Assembly (NCBI RefSeq): GCF_022921095.1
Contig: NZ_CP095053.1
Span: forward strand, 1,034,501-1,098,500
DNA: 64,000 nucleotides
Reading direction: 5' to 3'
DNA from: Hymenobacter aerilatus
GTDB taxonomy: Bacteria > Bacteroidota > Bacteroidia > Cytophagales > Hymenobacteraceae
Of this stretch, positions 38,733-45,077 are shown in pieces; position 1 is the first letter of the stretch; each line of letters begins with the position of its first letter. The position numbers and the translations under genes are program-made. The notes below the pieces were generated by a model. The model ran no database searches, had not been told where the DNA came from, and was given only the letters and a program-made list of their open reading frames with translations.

Positions 38733-40049
38733 ATGGCTAACCGCTACAAACCCTTATCCCACGAAGCCTGGCAAGCTGAACAAGCAGTAATTATTCTAGC
38801 GGCCTCACGACGCCTTGACTGGCGCCGCTGGCCAGCCGCCCGGCAGGTAGGGTACCTATGCTCCTTCACTGGGTCGTTGCCCGTGGTGGAGGCTCATCTA
38901 GGTACTGGCTCAGTACTGGCAGAGTTCTACCGCAACTGTCTGCACAACCGCTCCTACTCGGAGCAGCAGCGGTGCCGGAAAGTGCTCTTGGCCCTAGCCT
39001 ATAAGCGCAGTGAACTGCTGTGGCGCCCCGAGCTAAGTGCCGCGCTGGCCGCGCTGGTTCAAGTTTATCCCCAGCGATGCCGCGAACTGGCCGACTGGCA
39101 ACCCCGCAGCCGCAACCCGTTTCGGCAGCTGGAAAGCTTGGTGCGGCATTTATTCGATCAATACGGCGACCTACCCACCTGGGTGCTGAACGCCTGGACA
39201 GCCAATCGGCTGCACGACGGTATCAACATCGCCGACCTCACAACGCATTTGGGGCGGGGTGGTGCCCTCCGGACGTTTCACAAGCTGCCGGTGCCTCTCA
39301 CCCGGAAGCTCGAACACCACCTGCGGCAAGCTCCCGCTGGCTACACCTTTCTGGAGGCGTTGCTTTACGCTCAGCTAGCTGCCCGCAACCAACTGGCGTG
39401 GCTAGGACCGGTGCTCGACTCACGCCTCGGGCGCAGGTTGAGCCGCGACGATGAGTTCTACCTACGGGTAGTCGACTTTTTTGCGGCGGCGCCGATGGTT
39501 GACCCCAACCAGTTTGGGCCAGTGTGCGACTGGATTCACCAGAAGCGCCGGGTAGGCATCGGCGACGAGCCCGCCCAACCTGGCTTCTCGCTGAAAGGTA
39601 GGTCGATGGCGGGAGTGCTGGCCCACACAGCCAAGTGGCATCGCCAACTGGTTCGGGCACGCAACAACCCCGATTCCCGTCACCCTCAGGAGACGTTTGC
39701 ATCCACCTGGGAACTGCTGCCCGTGCCCAACTTCACGGGTGGCGACAAAGGGCAGGTGCGCATCACGCAGTTGGGCAGCTACTGGGAGTTGGTGGAAGAA
39801 GGAGGGGCCCTGCACCACTGCGTGTCGTCCTACCTGAACTCCTGCCAGCGCGGACGGTGCGGTATCTTCTCGCTCACCCTCAATGGCGTGCGTACGCTTA
39901 CCCTGGAGGTGCTGGCCAACCGCACCATCATACAAGCCCGCGGCAAATATAACCGCCGCCTCACCGACACTGAGTATGTGTGGGTAACCCGCTGGGCCGC
40001 CGAAGCCCGCCTGCTGGTACCAAAGCATCTGTTTGCTGCCGCTGGGTAA
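38733..40049 (+). CDS. PcfJ-like protein, first gene of the Ro/RtcB operon
   Basis: 438 residues. The C-terminal part carries the PcfJ-like signature: YWELVEEGGALHHCVSSYLNSCQRGRCGIFSL, then RTLTLEVLANRTIIQARGKYNR and TEYVWVTRWAAEARL. PcfJ family proteins were first named on conjugative plasmids and have no established activity; conserved His and Cys in HHCV suggest a catalytic or metal site. The N-terminal 330 residues are helical and unassigned. The gene lies 78 bases before the TROVE gene on the same strand. I take it as part of the same RNA-handling operon by position only. Confidence 0.7.
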   Translation: MANRYKPLSHEAWQAEQAVIILAASRRLDWRRWPAARQVGYLCSFTGSLPVVEAHLGTGSVLAEFYRNCLHNRSYSEQQRCRKVLLALAYKRSELLWRPELSAALAALVQVYPQRCRELADWQPRSRNPFRQLESLVRHLFDQYGDLPTWVLNAWTANRLHDGINIADLTTHLGRGGALRTFHKLPVPLTRKLEHHLRQAPAGYTFLEALLYAQLAARNQLAWLGPVLDSRLGRRLSRDDEFYLRVVDFFAAAPMVDPNQFGPVCDWIHQKRRVGIGDEPAQPGFSLKGRSMAGVLAHTAKWHRQLVRARNNPDSRHPQETFASTWELLPVPNFTGGDKGQVRITQLGSYWELVEEGGALHHCVSSYLNSCQRGRCGIFSLTLNGVRTLTLEVLANRTIIQARGKYNRRLTDTEYVWVTRWAAEARLLVPKHLFAAAG

Positions 40050-40127: not shown

Positions 40128-41705
40128 ATGCGCTTCAATACGCACACTCAACATCACTCGGCGCCTACTGCCGTGAACCACGAAGGCGCTCCTGCTTACC
40201 AACTCACACCACAGCTGGAGCTGTACGCTGCCGTGGCTACGGCAGCCCTCAGCAACCAGTTCTACGAATCGGCCGGCACACGTTTGCAGCGGTTGCGCCA
40301 GCTGATTGCGCAGAACGACCCACAGTTTGTGGCGCAGTTGGCGGTGTATGCCCGCGAGCAGTTGCACCTGCGCTCGGTGCCGCTGGTGCTGGCCGTAGAG
40401 CTGGCCCAGGTGCACCGCGGCGACGGTCTTGTGAGCCGCTTGGTAGCCCGCGTGGTGCAACGCGCCGATGAAATCACGGAGGTGCTGGCGTACTACGCCG
40501 CTGCCAACCAGCGCCAGGGCGCCAAAACGCTGAACCGCCTTTCCAAGCAGCTACAAAAAGGCCTGGCGTTGAGCTTCAATCGTTTCGATAGCTACCAGCT
40601 GGCCAAGTACGACCGCGCCGGTCAGGTACGCCTCCGCGATGCCCTGTTCCTGGTGCACCCCACCGCTAAGAGCCCCGAGCAGCAAGCTCTGTTCGACCAA
40701 CTGGTACGCGGTGAGCTGCCTACTCCCTACACCTGGGAAACCGAGCTATCGGCGCTGGGGCAGCAAGCGTTTGCTATGGATGCGGAACGGCAAGCGGCCT
40801 TCCGGCAGAAGTGGGAGGAGCTGATTGGCAGCGGCAAGCTGGGCTACATGGCCTTATTGCGCAACCTGCGCAACATCCTGGAGACCAACGTGTCGGGCGA
40901 GGCGGTAGAGCAAGTGTGCGCTACACTGGCCGACCGCACAGCGGTGGCACGCAGCAAGCAATTACCCTTCCGGTTCTTGGCCGCCTACCGAGAGGTGGTG
41001 GGCCTGGATGCGGGTTTGCTCCGGCGCGCGGCAGCAGCCATCGGCATTGGTAGCAGCAACGGCCACGTGCCCGCGGTGCTGGCAGCGCTGAAAACGGCCA
41101 TCAGCCACTCGGCTCAAAACCTGCGCGGTTTCGATGCCAATACACGAGTAGTCGTGGCCTGCGACGTGTCGGGCTCCATGCAGCAGCCTGTGTCGGCGCG
41201 CAGCAAAGTACTGCTCTACGACGTGGGGCTGGTGCTTGGCATGTTGCTACAAAGCCGCTGTCAGCACGTGGTAGCGGGGATGTTCGGCGACCAGTGGAAG
41301 CGCGTGACCCTACCTAAAGGGCAGGTGCTGCGCAACGTGCAGGAGCTCTATCGTCGCGAAGGTGAGGTAGGCTACAGCACCAACGGTCACTTGGTGGTGC
41401 AAGACCTGCGCCAGCGCCGGGAGGTAGTCGAGAAGGTGATGATCTTCACCGACTGCCAGCTCTGGGACAGCCGGGGCACCGGCAACACGCTGGCCCAGGC
41501 GTGGCGCGAATACCGCCGCACGGTGGCCCCCCACGCCCGCCTCTACCTCTTCGACCTGGCCGGCCACGGCACAACGCCGGTAGAGGTGCACGAGCAGGAC
41601 GGCGCAGCGCTCATCGCCGGCTGGTCCGACAAGGTGTTTGACGTGCTGGCGGCGCTGGAAAACGGCGGCTCCGCACTGACTGAAATTGAGAAAATTGATT
41701 TGTAA
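40128..41705 (+). CDS. rsr: TROVE-domain Ro60 orthologue (Rsr)
   Basis: 525 residues, the usual length of Ro60/Rsr. The N-terminal TROVE HEAT-repeat ring spans about residues 20-340 (with KLGYMALLRNLRNILETNVS, a Ro60 hallmark), and a von Willebrand A domain follows with the MIDAS motif VACDVSGSMQQP and FTDCQLWDS. Ro60 rings hold misfolded RNA ends in the central hole and Y RNAs on the outside; in bacteria Rsr works with Y RNAs and nucleases in RNA decay and stress survival. The seven Y-RNA-like units 1 kb downstream and rtcB beyond them match the rsr-yrlA-rtcB arrangement known from Salmonella. Confidence 0.93.
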   Translation: MRFNTHTQHHSAPTAVNHEGAPAYQLTPQLELYAAVATAALSNQFYESAGTRLQRLRQLIAQNDPQFVAQLAVYAREQLHLRSVPLVLAVELAQVHRGDGLVSRLVARVVQRADEITEVLAYYAAANQRQGAKTLNRLSKQLQKGLALSFNRFDSYQLAKYDRAGQVRLRDALFLVHPTAKSPEQQALFDQLVRGELPTPYTWETELSALGQQAFAMDAERQAAFRQKWEELIGSGKLGYMALLRNLRNILETNVSGEAVEQVCATLADRTAVARSKQLPFRFLAAYREVVGLDAGLLRRAAAAIGIGSSNGHVPAVLAALKTAISHSAQNLRGFDANTRVVVACDVSGSMQQPVSARSKVLLYDVGLVLGMLLQSRCQHVVAGMFGDQWKRVTLPKGQVLRNVQELYRREGEVGYSTNGHLVVQDLRQRREVVEKVMIFTDCQLWDSRGTGNTLAQAWREYRRTVAPHARLYLFDLAGHGTTPVEVHEQDGAALIAGWSDKVFDVLAALENGGSALTEIEKIDL

Positions 41706-41776: not shown

Positions 41777-42619
41777 ATGAATCGTGAACAACGACAACAA
41801 TTAGCTACTGAAACCCTGACAGCGCTTCAGCGCGGCGCCTACCTAACGGAAGCCGAGCAAGAGGTGACGATTGCCGCGTGGCAACAAGCCGCCGAGCAAA
41901 ACAGCCAACTCTACCGCCCAGAAGATGCTACCGAGCTACTCTTGGAGCTAACGAAACCGGCCAGCGCGTCTGCCGAGGTGCGCGTGTACAACGCCACTAC
42001 ACTGCACGCTGCCGCCGATTTGGCGCAACAGTACGTGCGTGTAGCCTGTCTGAACTTTGCCTCAGCGCGTAACCCCGGTGGCGGATTTTTGGGTGGCAGC
42101 CAGGCCCAGGAAGAAAGCCTAGCCCGCTCAACGGGGCTGTACCCGTGCATTGCGCAGTTTGCCGAGATGTATAAATACAATGCCCGGCCCACTAGTACAG
42201 GCCTCTACAGCGACTACGCCATCTACTCGCCCGGCGTGCCGGTACTGCGAAACGATGCCGGACAGTGGCTTACAGCGCCCTACCGCGTCGACATCATCAC
42301 AGCACCCGCCGTGAATGCCGGCGCGCTCCGTCAGAATGCTCCGCACCTGCTGCCGCACCTAGCACCCACCATGCGGCAACGCATTCGACAGGTGCTGGCA
42401 CTTGCTGCCCGTTACAACGTGGAGGCGTTGGTGCTGGGGGCCTGGGGTTGTGGCGTGTTCGGCAATGATCCGACACAGCTGGCGCAGCTCTTCGCCGAGG
42501 CGTTAGCCGAGCCTTCTATTCGCGGCCGTTTTCAGCGTATCGATTTTGCGGTGCATGATACCCGACTGCCCTACCCAACACTCACCGCTTTCGAGCACAC
42601 GCTTGATGCCTTTACCTGA
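41777..42619 (+). CDS. TIGR02452-type macrodomain protein (bacterial PARG-like)
   Basis: 280 residues. The core begins with an N-terminal helical part and reaches the phrase LNFASARNPGGGFLGGSQAQEESLARST, which contains the GGG...QEE catalytic signature of microbial poly(ADP-ribose) glycohydrolases. The C-terminal loop VLGAWGCGVFGNDPTQLAQLF matches the macrodomain phosphate loop. It should remove ADP-ribose from a target; the family also occurs near RNA repair genes, where ADP-ribosylated or phosphorylated RNA ends are possible substrates. It lies between rsr and the Y-RNA array. Confidence 0.85.
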   Translation: MNREQRQQLATETLTALQRGAYLTEAEQEVTIAAWQQAAEQNSQLYRPEDATELLLELTKPASASAEVRVYNATTLHAAADLAQQYVRVACLNFASARNPGGGFLGGSQAQEESLARSTGLYPCIAQFAEMYKYNARPTSTGLYSDYAIYSPGVPVLRNDAGQWLTAPYRVDIITAPAVNAGALRQNAPHLLPHLAPTMRQRIRQVLALAARYNVEALVLGAWGCGVFGNDPTQLAQLFAEALAEPSIRGRFQRIDFAVHDTRLPYPTLTAFEHTLDAFT

Positions 42620-42710: not shown

Positions 42711-42819
42711 AAGGTGCCGTAGGTGGGCATTACTTCGTGGTGAAGCCGTATGGTTTGGGTTCGAATCCCACTGCGCAATCCAGGTTGTGCAGATTAGTCG
42801 CCTGCCGCTTGTTGCCCTT
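42711..42819 (+). ncRNA. Y-RNA-like unit 1 with T-arm and acceptor mimic
   Basis: Closing stem AAGG...CCTT with a bulged C on the 3' strand, then the shared GGTGCCGTAG and CGCTTGTTGCCC elements. The inner helix is GGTGGGC/GCCTGCC (7 pairs including two wobbles). The insert has a T arm (TGGGTTCGAATCCCA) and an acceptor-like stem CTGCGCAA/TTGTGCAG (8 pairs with one wobble), but the D arm is eroded. It starts 91 bases after the PARG-like gene. Confidence 0.75.
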
Positions 42820-42850
42820 GTTGAGTTGAGAATACGTACTGATTTTCAAA

Positions 42851-42981
42851 CGGGTGCCGTAGCCAAGCCTTACTTCGCACTCTTAATGCCCGGGTCGTGG
42901 GTTCGAGTCCCACCAGCTGCCGTGCGGCGGCTGTAGCTCAGGTGGTAGAGCAGGATACAGTGGCTGGCGTTTGTTGCCCCG
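42851..42981 (+). ncRNA. Y-RNA-like unit 2 with permuted tRNA mimic
   Basis: Closing stem CGGG/CCCG with the bulged C, shared GGTGCCGTAG and CGTTTGTTGCC elements, inner helix GCCA(A)GCC/GGCTGGC. The insert reads as a circularly permuted tRNA: T arm GTGGG-TTCGAGT-CCCAC (42897-42913), acceptor 3' strand AGCTGCC (42915-42921), tetraloop GTGC, acceptor 5' strand GGCGGCT (42926-42932), then a canonical D arm TAGCTCAGGTGGTAGAGCA. The Y stem replaces the anticodon arm, as described for YrlA RNAs. Confidence 0.82.
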
Positions 42982-43001
42982 CGCGGAAATCAGGATAGTT
43001 T

Positions 43002-43143
43002 GTTGGGTGTCGTAGGGAGCCGATACTTCGGTGTACGTTCCGTAAGGAAGTGCAGGTTCGAGTCCTGCCTTGTGGTCTCGTGGCCGCAAGTGGCGAAACT
43101 GGTAGACGCGCTACAGGCAACGGCCGCCGTTTGTTACCCCAAC
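43002..43143 (+). ncRNA. Y-RNA-like unit 3 mimicking class II tRNA-Leu
   Basis: Closing stem GTTGGG/CCCAAC with bulged C; GGTGTCGTAG and CGTTTGTTACC elements; inner helix GG..GCC/GGC..CC with a 2x2 loop. The insert has a variable-arm hairpin TTCC-GTAA-GGAA, T arm GCAGG-TTCGAGT-CCTGC, acceptor-like CTTGTGG/CCGCAAG, and a leucine-type D arm TGGCGAAACTGGTAGACGC. The true tRNA-Leu at 49386 has almost the same D arm (TGGTGAAACTGGTAGACAC). Confidence 0.82.
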
Positions 43144-43158
43144 TCATTTTTTACCCTA

Positions 43159-43295
43159 GTACGGGTGCCGTAGTCGGGTCATACTTCGCCGTTAACATCC
43201 AGATGCGGGTTCAACTCCCGCCGGTTGTGTTGTAAACCAACCGTAGCTGAGTCAGAAAGCAGGATGAGAAAGCCCCGGCGCTTGTTGCTCCGTAC
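43159..43295 (+). ncRNA. Y-RNA-like unit 4 with permuted tRNA mimic
   Basis: Closing stem GTACGGG/CTCCGTAC (one wobble) with bulged C; GGTGCCGTAG and CGCTTGTTGCT elements; inner helix GTCGGG/CCCGGC. Insert: T arm GCGGG-TTCAACT-CCCGC, acceptor-like CGGTTG/CAACCG, and a D-arm-like TAGCTGAGTCAGAAAGCA. Confidence 0.78.
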
Positions 43296-43308
43296 AAGAA
43301 TTATTTAC

Positions 43309-43446
43309 CTGATAGGTGCCGTAGCATAGCCTTCCTTCGCTTGGGGCGCTGGGGTCGTGGGTTCGAGTCTCACCTGCCTTTTAGGGCAGTAGCTCAGTTG
43401 GTTAGAGCACAGTTTAACGGTGGCTATGCGTTTGTTGCCCTGTCAG
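43309..43446 (+). ncRNA. Y-RNA-like unit 5 with permuted tRNA mimic
   Basis: Closing stem CTGATAGG/CCTGTCAG (8 pairs, one wobble) with bulged C; GGTGCCGTAG and CGTTTGTTGCC elements; inner helix GCATAGCC/GGCTATGC, 8 perfect pairs. Insert: T arm GTGGG-TTCGAGT-CTCAC, acceptor-like CTGCC/GGCAG with a short loop, canonical D arm TAGCTCAGTTGGTTAGAGCA. This is the clearest copy. Confidence 0.84.
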
Positions 43447-43460
43447 TTTTAATAGGAGAA

Positions 43461-43531
43461 AGGAAGGTGTCGTAGAGTAGTCATACTTCGTACTGAAAAT
43501 ACCAAACGGCTATTCGTTTTTCACCCTTCCT
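43461..43531 (+). ncRNA. Y-RNA-like unit 6, minimal, no tRNA part
   Basis: Closing stem AGGAAGG/CCTTCCT with bulged C; GGTGTCGTAG 5' element; inner helix GAGTAGTC/GGCTATTC (8 pairs with wobbles). The loop is only about 25 bases and starts with the conserved ATACTTCG seen in most units. The 3' element is degenerate (CGTTTTTCACC). It resembles a simple Y RNA without the effector module. Confidence 0.68.
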
Positions 43532-43542
43532 ACCTCTTATTG

Positions 43543-43635
43543 CCTACTACCAGATGCCGTAGGTCCGCGTTACTTCGACCTGTCACGTCGGCTATCAGCC
43601 TTGCGCGAACCGCCTGTTGCTCTGGTACCAGTAGG
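43543..43635 (+). ncRNA. Y-RNA-like unit 7, minimal, no tRNA part
   Basis: Closing stem in two parts, CCTACT/AGTAGG and ACCAGA/TCTGGT, with the bulged C; ATGCCGTAG 5' element; inner helix GGTCCGCG/CGCGAACC with one mismatch; GTTACTTCG in the loop. The loop has no T or D arm. It ends 38 bases before the rtcB start. Confidence 0.7.
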
Positions 43636-43673: not shown

Positions 43674-45077
43674 ATGGCTCAACAACTACGCGGCAACGAC
43701 CTTCGCCAACTGGGTTTCCCGGAAGGTCGGGCCATTGGGCTGGCGCTGGCACAATTGCAGCGCAAGCACCTCAAAAAACTTTCGCATACCGAGCAGCTGA
43801 TGTTGCTCCAAAATTTACTCGCTAACCCCAACGACTACCTCACCCACCTCGATTGGAGCCACACGGCCGCCGCCTTGCTACCACCGCCTTCGCGCCATAT
43901 TGCCCTAGCCGAGCGCAAGCCTTACGCCTTGTTTGGGGCTGAGTACATCGACCAGAGTGCCATTCACCAGATGGAAACGGCCATGAAACTGCCCGTGACG
44001 GTGGCCGGCGCCCTCATGCCCGACGCTCACCACGGCTACGGCCTACCCATCGGGGGCGTGCTGGCTACCGATAACGCCGTGATTCCCTACGCTGTGGGCG
44101 TCGACATTGGCTGCCGTATGGCCTTGTCAGTATTCGCGCTGCCGCCCAAGCACCTGGAGCAGCGTGTGCAGGAGCTACGCAAAATGCTGGTAGACAACAC
44201 CCGCTTCGGTAACCGCGACGTATTCCGTCACGGGCAGAAGCTGGACCACGCCGTGCTCGACCGCGCCGAATTCCAGGAAATCGGGTTTCTGCGCAATAAG
44301 CTGGACACGGCGGCCACCCAAATTGGCTCATCGGGTGGCGGCAACCACTTTGTGGAGTGGGGTGTGGTAGACATTCTCGACCCGACCAATGAGTTGGGCG
44401 TGCCGGTAGGGCAGTATCTGGGGCTGTTGTCGCACTCCGGCTCGCGGGGGCTGGGTGCTAGCATCGCCAACCACTACACCAAGCTCGCCAAAGACGTGTG
44501 CCAACTGCCCAGCGAGGCGCAGCACCTAGCTTGGCTTTCGCTGGAAAGCGAAGCCGGCCAAGAGTACTGGGCCGCCATGAATCTGGCTGGCGACTACGCC
44601 TCGGCGTGCCACCACCAGATTCATCAGCGACTGGCCAAGGCCTTGGGCGAACGGCCCCTGGCAAAAGTGGAAAACCACCACAACTTTGCTTGGAAAGAAC
44701 GCCTTGCGACTGGGCAGGAGGTAGTGGTGCACCGCAAGGGCGCCACGCCGGCCGGCGCGGGCGTGCTGGGCATCATCCCCGGCTCCATGACGGCCCCTGG
44801 CTTTATTGTGCGGGGTAGGGGCGAGGCAACATCGCTGGCATCGGCCTCACACGGGGCCGGCCGGGCCATGTCGCGCACCCGCGCCAAGCAGGAGTTGGGC
44901 GAAGCCGACGTACGACGCTACCTCCAGCAGCACCACATCGAGCTGATTGGGGGCGGGGTAGACGAGGCTCCTCAGGCGTACAAAGACATCCACGCCGTGA
45001 TGGCCAGCCAGCACGATCTGGTGGATGTGCTGGGCACGTTCACGCCGCGCATTGTACGCATGGAAGGCGGGGTATAG
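43674..45077 (+). CDS. rtcB: RNA-splicing ligase RtcB
   Basis: 467 residues. RtcB joins RNA ends with 2',3'-cyclic phosphate or 3'-phosphate to 5'-OH ends, using GTP and Mn2+. Motifs: PDAHHGYGLPIGGV and VGVDIGCRMA with the metal-binding Asp and Cys, SSGGGNHFVEWG, LLSHSGSRGLGASIAN, ENHHNFAW, VVHRKGATPA, GIIPGSMTAPGFIVRG and SASHGAGRAMSR containing the guanylylated His. All are intact, so it should be active. It is the last gene of the island, 38 bases after the Y-RNA array, with a terminator behind. Neither archease, RtcA nor an RtcR activator is present here. Confidence 0.96.
   Translation: MAQQLRGNDLRQLGFPEGRAIGLALAQLQRKHLKKLSHTEQLMLLQNLLANPNDYLTHLDWSHTAAALLPPPSRHIALAERKPYALFGAEYIDQSAIHQMETAMKLPVTVAGALMPDAHHGYGLPIGGVLATDNAVIPYAVGVDIGCRMALSVFALPPKHLEQRVQELRKMLVDNTRFGNRDVFRHGQKLDHAVLDRAEFQEIGFLRNKLDTAATQIGSSGGGNHFVEWGVVDILDPTNELGVPVGQYLGLLSHSGSRGLGASIANHYTKLAKDVCQLPSEAQHLAWLSLESEAGQEYWAAMNLAGDYASACHHQIHQRLAKALGERPLAKVENHHNFAWKERLATGQEVVVHRKGATPAGAGVLGIIPGSMTAPGFIVRGRGEATSLASASHGAGRAMSRTRAKQELGEADVRRYLQQHHIELIGGGVDEAPQAYKDIHAVMASQHDLVDVLGTFTPRIVRMEGGV

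What the first reader, a model, noticed from the sequence alone, without database searches (positions are those of the whole stretch)
42711..43635. Array of seven Y-RNA-like elements between a PARG-like gene and rtcB
The 1-kb gap holds seven tandem units in one orientation. Each has a 5' GGTGYCGTAG (ATGCCGTAG in unit 7), a 3' element near CGYTTGTTRCY, and most have TACTTCG just inside. The outer stems (AAGG/CCTT, CGGG/CCCG, GTTGGG/CCCAAC, GTACGGG/CTCCGTAC, CTGATAGG/CCTGTCAG, AGGAAGG/CCTTCCT, ACCAGA/TCTGGT) and the inner stems (for example GCATAGCC/GGCTATGC, GGTGGGC/GCCTGCC, GAGTAGTC/GGCTATTC) differ in sequence but still pair, and a bulged C on the 3' strand is kept in all. This is covariation visible by eye. 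The conserved 5' element resembles GGU-CCGAAG of known Y RNAs. Known bacterial loci carry one or two Y RNAs; a run of seven is unusual.
Basis: partly seen in the sequence, partly recalled or inferred. Interest (0 to 1): 0.95.

Follow-up and report, generated by a model that had tools for sequence, protein, structure and literature searches.

The report
Y RNA array displaying tRNA anticodon arms
Between a Ro60-like gene and an RNA-ligase gene, a bacterium close to Hymenobacter profundi carries seven tandem Y-RNA-like units that contain tRNA-like parts, four of them with different closed anticodon loops, which would make the array a set of tRNA look-alikes that likely serve as decoys for enzymes that read or cut tRNAs.

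Summary
Confirmed: seven same-strand units (42711-43626) with conserved end motifs and covarying stems lie between a PARG-like gene and rtcB, downstream of a Ro60-like gene (rsr). Such arrays are usual in the genus: 251 units in 43 loci, two to nine each. Units 2-5 hold permuted tRNAs (T arm, closed acceptor, D arm; unit 4 degenerate); unit 1 has only T arm and acceptor; unit 3 imitates a class II, Leu-like tRNA. Units 2 and 5 also hold a complete anticodon arm (CUU, UGG); short units 6 and 7 show loops identical to the genome's Phe and Asp anticodon loops. Over 323 distinct modules from this genus, other Bacteroidota, phages and plasmids, tertiary pair 15-48 holds in 304 and 162 have a closed 5-bp anticodon arm. 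In one slot the triplet changes quickly between relatives. tRNA-like bacterial Y RNAs are known; I found no account of an anticodon repertoire in what I could search, but the primary papers were not held. Decoy function is inferred; expression and Rsr binding are untested.

The parts
40128..41705 (+). rsr, Ro60-like protein (TROVE + Ro60 vWA)
   Evidence: Pfam PF05731 E 3.1e-32, PF25045 E 7.4e-9; match in 43 of 61 same-genus genomes, own genome included
41777..42619 (+). PARG-like gene (PF10021 microbial-type PARG); found at 16 of 42 same-genus loci
   Evidence: E 1.1e-45
42711..42819 (+). Unit 1: Y stem with T arm (42755-42771) and closed acceptor hairpin (42772-42791); no D arm recognised
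   Evidence: four units in relatives that look like this class (slot judged by eye) hold a 17-nt stretch identical to the tRNA-Asn anticodon arm
42851..42981 (+). Unit 2: Y stem plus complete permuted tRNA; anticodon arm 42877-42891 with loop CTCTTAA (triplet CUU) closed by 42953-42954, T arm 42897-42913, acceptor hairpin 42914-42933, D arm 42936-42951
   Evidence: re-ordered pieces read as tRNA-Lys(ctt) by ARAGORN
43002..43143 (+). Unit 3: Y stem plus permuted class II, Leu-like module; variable arm 43037-43051, T arm 43052-43068, acceptor hairpin 43069-43090, D arm 43091-43109; no closed anticodon loop
   Evidence: D arm one mismatch from the genome's tRNA-Leu(cag) D arm listed
43159..43295 (+). 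Unit 4: Y stem plus degenerate permuted module; GTT triplet inside 43189-43195, T arm 43205-43221, D-like arm 43246-43260
   Evidence: module score 16.6; 15-48 pair not kept; the stem GGATG/CATCC, with the loop open at its 5' edge, was read by eye
43309..43446 (+). Unit 5: Y stem plus permuted tRNA; anticodon arm CAG|CG-CTTGGGG-CGCTG (triplet UGG, G37; 3' part 43338-43351), T arm 43357-43373, acceptor 43374-43389, D arm 43392-43408
   Evidence: Rfam YrlA 43.5 bits over 43349-43413
43461..43531 (+). Unit 6: short Y unit; hairpin GTA-CTGAAAA-TAC at 43490-43502, loop identical to the genome's tRNA-Phe(GAA)
43549..43626 (+). Unit 7: short Y unit; hairpin CGAC-CTGTCAC-GTCG at 43576-43590, loop identical to the genome's tRNA-Asp(GUC)
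43674..45077 (+). rtcB, RNA ligase
   Evidence: Pfam PF01139 E 1.9e-84

Best explanation
The seven tandem units have conserved end motifs and paired stems like those of Y RNAs, likely bind the Ro60-like protein encoded upstream, and contain tRNA-like parts with different anticodon loops that are predicted to act as decoys for enzymes that recognise or cut tRNA anticodon arms. Shown by sequence: each unit has a Y stem; units 2-5 hold a permuted tRNA (T arm, acceptor stem closed by a loop, D arm; unit 4 degenerate) and unit 1 its T arm and acceptor; in unit 2 the anticodon arm is whole and the Y stem enters through a break in its 5' strand; units 6 and 7 show anticodon hairpins without the tRNA body. 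Because the acceptor stem is closed, a unit would have no CCA end and could not carry an amino acid. Inferred: the units are transcribed and cut into separate RNAs; their stems bind Rsr; the displayed arms occupy tRNA-cutting toxins, phage or host anticodon nucleases, or similar enzymes during RNA damage, while RtcB rejoins cut tRNAs; fast swapping of the triplet follows changing attackers. Likelihood: Y RNAs bound by Rsr about 0.9; decoy role about 0.4.
For: Permuted modules: 125 of 251 same-genus units score at least 16 while shuffled cores reach at most 11.5. Levitt pair 15-48: 115 of 120 same-genus modules (shuffle mean 69.5, maximum 90) and 304 of 323 distinct modules. Closed 5-bp anticodon arm with 7-nt loop: 111 of 214 modules in the expected register, at most 26 in any other register; counted with open loops too, 119 observed against a partner-shuffled mean of 29.2 and maximum of 41. 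Over 323 distinct modules 162 are closed, with U33 in 130 and a purine at 37 in 145 (T is 32% of the flank); among the 130 U33 loops G37 goes with G36 in 34 of 37 (shuffle mean 15.1, maximum 27) and U36 with A37 in 55 of 56; over the 59 distinct loop sequences these are 20 of 23 and 14 of 15. Class II (Leu/Ser-like) D arms: 23 of 27 have a variable-arm hairpin and none the class I ending; of 92 class I D arms 84 have that ending and 11 also score as a hairpin. Short units: 17 of 51 hold an exact tRNA anticodon loop closed by 2 bp or more (shuffled mean 0.44, maximum 3; reverse complement 1). Triplet turnover in one orthologous slot: 18 changes on a 36-row Rsr tree, least possible 10, shuffled mean 20.3. 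Neighbouring RtcB and the published suggestion, in passages of PMC7790460, that the YrlA tRNA-like domain may competitively inhibit an anticodon nuclease.
Against: No expression, binding or cleavage data. Single-sequence minimum-energy folds show the 3-bp anticodon hairpin in 19 of 39 unit-2 orthologues and not in the window's own unit 2; the drawn model, which leaves out the Ro-site pairs, scores 12.6-35.3 kcal/mol above the minimum; RNAalifold does not call the hairpin. Anticodon and D arm do not point to the same isotype as a rule: of 5 closed-arm modules with the Arg-type D loop only 1 has an Arg triplet, and 23 Arg triplets lack that loop. The window's own CUU triplet has no matching tRNA among the 44 found in its genome, and GCG, ATT and AAG, seen in relatives, are absent from that set too (the relatives' own tRNAs were not examined). 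Triplet turnover also fits neutral drift; 4 of 200 shuffles were as low as observed, and some acceptor positions vary more than the triplet. PrrC-like ATPases pass the cut-off in only 7 of 61 same-genus genomes, not in the window's. Salmonella YrlA was reported not to be cut by the induced nuclease (PMC7790460, passage).
Confidence: 0.42

Rival explanations
1. The tRNA-like domains are handles: each Y RNA tethers Rsr to an effector such as PNPase, or gates Rsr, and several copies give dosage or different handles; the anticodon loops come along because a whole tRNA fold is the handle.
For: The published role of Deinococcus Y RNA and of YrlA as tether (passages of PMC7790460, and PMC8394870). 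Elbow features are among the most constant parts: 15-48 pair 304 of 323, D stem and most of the T arm invariant in 39 unit-2 orthologues.
Against: It does not predict U33, purine 37 and the G36-G37 link in 7-nt loops, nor short units that keep only the anticodon hairpin, nor a fast-changing triplet between near-constant positions 33 and 37.
Confidence: 0.32
2. The units are docking sites or sponges for tRNA-modifying enzymes that read the anticodon loop (t6A37, m1G37) or the elbow (TruB, DusA).
For: YrlA is reported as a TruB and DusA substrate (PMC8394870 passage). The loops obey 36/37 combinations found in tRNAs.
Against: No benefit to the cell is evident; the enzyme assignments at position 37 are recalled, not tested here.
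Confidence: 0.15
3. The array is a graveyard of captured and duplicated tRNA pieces with little function beyond Rsr binding.
For: Some units are degenerate (unit 1 has no recognised D arm; unit 4 lacks the 15-48 pair).
Against: Compensatory changes in stems, paired 15-48 changes, presence across the order and in some phage and plasmid loci.
Confidence: 0.07

Closest known systems
[quoted passage not shown]
   Same: Beside rsr and rtcB; Y stem; permuted T arm, acceptor hairpin, D arm (Rfam consensus shown)
   Different: Two to nine units per locus; class II modules; closed anticodon arms with varied triplets; short units with only an anticodon hairpin; below the Rfam gathering score (43.5 against 69 bits)
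Deinococcus Y RNA and the Rsr-PNPase machine (RYPER)
   Same: Ro60-like protein with Y RNAs
   Different: The partner nuclease and tethering are untested here; no multiplicity or anticodon loops are mentioned in the passages read
tmRNA and other tRNA mimics
   Same: A tRNA elbow built into a longer RNA
   Different: Here the acceptor is closed by a loop, so no CCA end; no reading frame is implied
Phage tRNA arrays that counter tRNA cleavage (recalled)
   Same: A set of tRNA-like genes near RNA repair genes
   Different: Not decoding tRNAs; attached to Y stems

Membership tests
Bacterial Y RNA (Ro60/Rsr partner) | Encoded next to an Ro60-like gene | tested here: met
   rsr ends 41705, array starts 42711; an rsr hit followed by an rtcB hit at all 42 same-genus loci fetched, one with only an rsr remnant
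Bacterial Y RNA (Ro60/Rsr partner) | 5' and 3' ends form a stem with a conserved internal site | tested here: met
Bacterial Y RNA (Ro60/Rsr partner) | Bound by the Ro60-like protein | not testable with these tools
   needs pull-down or binding assay
Bacterial Y RNA (Ro60/Rsr partner) | Transcribed as small RNA | not testable with these tools
   no RNA-seq; the sigma-70 consensus scan found 0 promoter-like sites (shuffle mean 0.9) and 4 terminator-like sites (mean 2.6), two of them T arms of units: uninformative
YrlA, Rfam RF02553 | Reaches the curated gathering score (69 bits) | tested here: not met
   best 43.5 bits; not filed as an RF02553 member
YrlA-type tRNA-like domain | Order T arm, acceptor hairpin, D arm | tested here: met
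   units 2, 3, 4, 5 score at least 16; unit 1 partly; units 6 and 7 not
tRNA gene | Standard order with open acceptor and CCA | tested here: not met
   ARAGORN finds none in the array; 13 of 39 native-order unit-2 orthologues are called, and in the six printed the Y 5' strand takes the place of the tRNA 5' half
RNA repair operon | rsr with rtcB | tested here: met
RNA repair operon | rtcA and the regulator RtcR adjacent | tested here: inconclusive
   not among the 7 neighbouring proteins scanned; the rest of the window and genome were not searched for them

The most novel reading that the evidence does not exclude
The arrays are swappable libraries of tRNA anticodon decoys: each Y RNA shows an attacker a different anticodon arm on a body that cannot be aminoacylated, the triplet is replaced as attackers change, and RtcB repairs the real tRNAs that are cut. 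This would be an RNA-based defence repertoire built on Ro60 particles in bacteria and phages.
Probability: 0.3. Interest if true: 0.95.

Novelty: new variant of a known kind. Interest (0 to 1): 0.86.

Why it matters
What bacterial Y RNAs and their tRNA-like domains do beyond tethering PNPase is open; PMC7790460 says that its own study did not address it (passage). Arrays in which the anticodon arm is kept whole, while its triplet varies, point to enzymes that read anticodon arms as the partners. The slot-by-slot variation gives ready-made natural mutants, so the idea can be tested directly in a laboratory strain.

Tried and rejected
Rfam at gathering score gave nothing. The RF02553 search over 296 genomes of the phylum was noisy: E. 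coli and B. subtilis, which have no TROVE hit, also ring. Four of its places were fetched: L282 and L283 hold ordinary tRNAs and no rsr or rtcB hit; L280 and L281 are Y arrays between a distant rsr (27% and 26% identity) and rtcB. My first unit finder was too strict (3 of 7 window units) and was replaced. The first module parser mis-set some registers and was replaced; 5 of its 125 high scorers were dropped as misparses. The module scan includes a few false hits (for example L175:6313) and can be fooled by adjacent real tRNAs (L190:7765); these stayed in the 323 distinct modules. In one search the register one base off also has 23 closed fits with U33- and purine-37-like bases in 17 and 22, perhaps arms with a 4-nt variable loop. 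The fit for window unit 3 ignores its long variable arm and is an artefact. The idea that each mimic copies one isoacceptor throughout was rejected: D arm and triplet usually disagree; exceptions are L177:10991 (initiator-like D arm with a CAT loop, not closed under the fixed split), and L161:9272 and L280:3994, Arg-type D loop with ACG. A link to PrrC-like nucleases was not found. Native-order ARAGORN calls (13 of 39) were looked into and set aside. The promoter and terminator scan was uninformative.

Full report
Observation. The gap between the PARG-like gene and rtcB holds seven units in one orientation, each opening with TG[CT]CGTAG and closing near TTGTTRCY inside complementary ends. In 43 rsr-rtcB gaps (the window and 42 same-genus loci) the same design recurs as 251 units, two to nine per locus, on the strand of rsr; the reverse strands and one shuffle of each gap gave none. 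Since that scan scores stems, stems were tested again in 66 units picked by exact end motifs alone: 84.6% (inner) and 91.6% (outer) of cells pair, against at most 53.0% and 55.0% in slid registers and at most 68.8% and 66.5% in partner shuffles. On 39 orthologues of unit 2, 90.4% of cells pair against at most 47.8% slid, and the covariation score is 0.381 against 0.147 in shuffles. rsr was found in 43 of 61 genomes of the genus, the window's included. The closest named relative returned is Hymenobacter profundi at 93% Rsr identity.

Neighbourhood. Upstream lies rsr (PF05731, PF25045), then a PARG-like gene (PF10021), the array, and rtcB (PF01139). PARG was found at 16 of 42 relatives; an rtcB hit follows rsr at all 42. 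A PcfJ-like gene was found at 22 of 42: before rsr (only about 1 kb upstream was fetched), or in five loci inside the gap with Y units on both sides of it.

What the units carry. A parser for T arm, acceptor hairpin and D arm, in that order, gives 125 of 251 units a score of 16 or more; shuffled cores stay at or below 11.5. The order is that of a tRNA cut open near the anticodon and closed at the acceptor end, as in the Rfam YrlA consensus. After dropping 5 misparses, 120 modules remain. U8 is kept in 119 and A14 in 119 of 120, the T loop is TTCGA in 104, and the tertiary Levitt pair is G15-C48 in 83 and A15-U48 in 32: 115 of 120, shuffle mean 69.5 and maximum 90 (shuffles ignore relatedness). 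D arms nearest to tRNA-Leu or tRNA-Ser number 27; 23 of them have a variable-arm hairpin and none the class I variable ending, while 84 of 92 class I D arms have that ending. Window unit 3 is of the Leu-like kind.

The anticodon arm. In 39 units orthologous to window unit 2, selected for a paired 29-31/39-41 stem, pairs 27-43 and 28-42 are also kept in all 39, the Y body entering between 28 and 29; the loop has seven bases with U33 in 37 and A37 in 37. Put into tRNA order, all 39 are called as tRNAs by ARAGORN, the window's as tRNA-Lys(ctt). Allowing the entry point to vary, 111 of 214 modules (67 of 77 loci, genus and outside) have five pairs and a closed loop in the expected register; other registers reach at most 26, and with open loops counted too 119 stand against a shuffled mean of 29.2 and maximum of 41. 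Adding 80 named loci and 12 phage or plasmid loci, 419 modules reduce to 323 distinct ones: 162 closed arms, U33 in 130, purine 37 in 145, pair 15-48 in 304. Among U33 loops G37 occurs with G36 in 34 of 37, and U36 is followed by A37 in 55 of 56 (20 of 23 and 14 of 15 over 59 distinct loops). Nine of 251 units hold a 17-nt stretch within two mismatches of a real anticodon arm of the window's genome, four identical to tRNA-Asn; none in the reverse complement or in shuffles. The short units, which lack the tRNA body, show exact tRNA anticodon loops in 17 of 51 (shuffled mean 0.44, maximum 3; reverse complement 1): window unit 6 has the Phe loop and unit 7 the Asp loop.

Turnover. In the unit-2 slot, positions 34-36 have entropies of 1.21 to 1.28 bits against 0.34 at 33 and 37; some acceptor positions reach 1.88. 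On a tree of 36 Rsr proteins (first unit used where a locus has two) the triplet needs 18 changes where 10 is the minimum and shuffles average 20.3; 4 of 200 shuffles were as low. Close pairs differ, for example L035 and L062. This is fast turnover; the data do not separate selection from drift.

Breadth. TROVE proteins ring in 55 of 241 genomes drawn from the order. Of 40 loci fetched outside the window's genus, 35 have at least one module, up to six in L161; the reverse strands gave three hits. In 80 named loci the forward strand has 190 modules and the reverse 2; 3 loci have none. In another family of the phylum a distant rsr (27% identity) has four modules between it and rtcB, one with an Arg-type D loop and an ACG arm. 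Of the 12 phage or plasmid loci, 9 gave module hits at the looser score of 15 (a few look false), and 4 a closed arm: Xanthomonas phage Olaya, a Rhodococcus plasmid, a Methylosinus plasmid and Streptomyces phage Quantum; L191, L193 and L199 gave none.

Against. Single-sequence folding finds the T arm in 31, acceptor in 28, D arm in 24 and anticodon hairpin in 19 of 39 unit-2 orthologues, and not in the window's unit 2. RNAalifold recovers the two Y stems and three tRNA arms but not the anticodon hairpin, whose pairs are split by a one-base shift in some rows. D arm and triplet mostly do not agree in isotype. The CUU of unit 2 has no counterpart among the genome's tRNAs found. Nothing here shows transcription, Rsr binding or any activity.

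Literature. Passages read: PMC7790460, PMC8394870, PMC7824862, PMC11277228, PMC12282133. They describe YrlA as imitating the D, T and acceptor arms, Rsr-PNPase tethering, and the suggestion that the tRNA-like domain could inhibit an anticodon nuclease. In the listings of searches of the open-licence library (most capped at 5 to 25 rows) I saw no title or abstract start about Y RNA arrays or anticodon repertoires in bacteria; the primary papers of 2014 and 2018 and the reviews of 2018 and 2020 are not held, so novelty is provisional.

Conclusion. The array is a set of Y-RNA-like units whose interiors imitate tRNAs of more than one structural class and show a repertoire of anticodon arms. I commit to a decoy role towards enzymes that read or cut anticodon arms, at about 0.4, with a tethering handle as the main rival.

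Noticed in passing
window 38733-40049: PcfJ-like gene (PF14284) beside rsr; in five relatives (L058, L061, L063, L064, L067) it sits inside the array, with Y units on both sides. A possible partner of the locus.
   Followed up: partly
window 41777-42619: PARG-like gene found at only 16 of 42 same-genus loci, hinting at a link with ADP-ribose chemistry on RNA ends.
   Followed up: partly
L032, L035, L038, L044, L051, L052, L057, L062: A second, divergent rtcB (63-66% identical to the window's) follows the first within the fetched stretch.
   Followed up: no
L104 (G000:C1:2026172-2026747): Cluster of divergent extra tRNAs (Gln, His, Pro and a Leu nearby in the list) in the window's genome, perhaps mobile.
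   Followed up: no
L190 (Arthrobacter phage Atuin): Ro-like gene inside a phage tRNA array, with permuted tRNA modules among the true tRNAs.
   Followed up: partly
G024:C20:43325-45541: Near full-length PrrC-like gene with one inner TAA on the same contig as the rsr array of L056, about 20 kb away.
   Followed up: no
L058, L062, L071, L072: rsr is interrupted or a remnant in four same-genus loci while Y units remain.
   Followed up: no
unit-2 orthologues such as L041, L048, L050: ARAGORN reports tRNAs here by taking the Y 5' strand for the tRNA 5' half; public annotations may carry such calls.
   Followed up: partly
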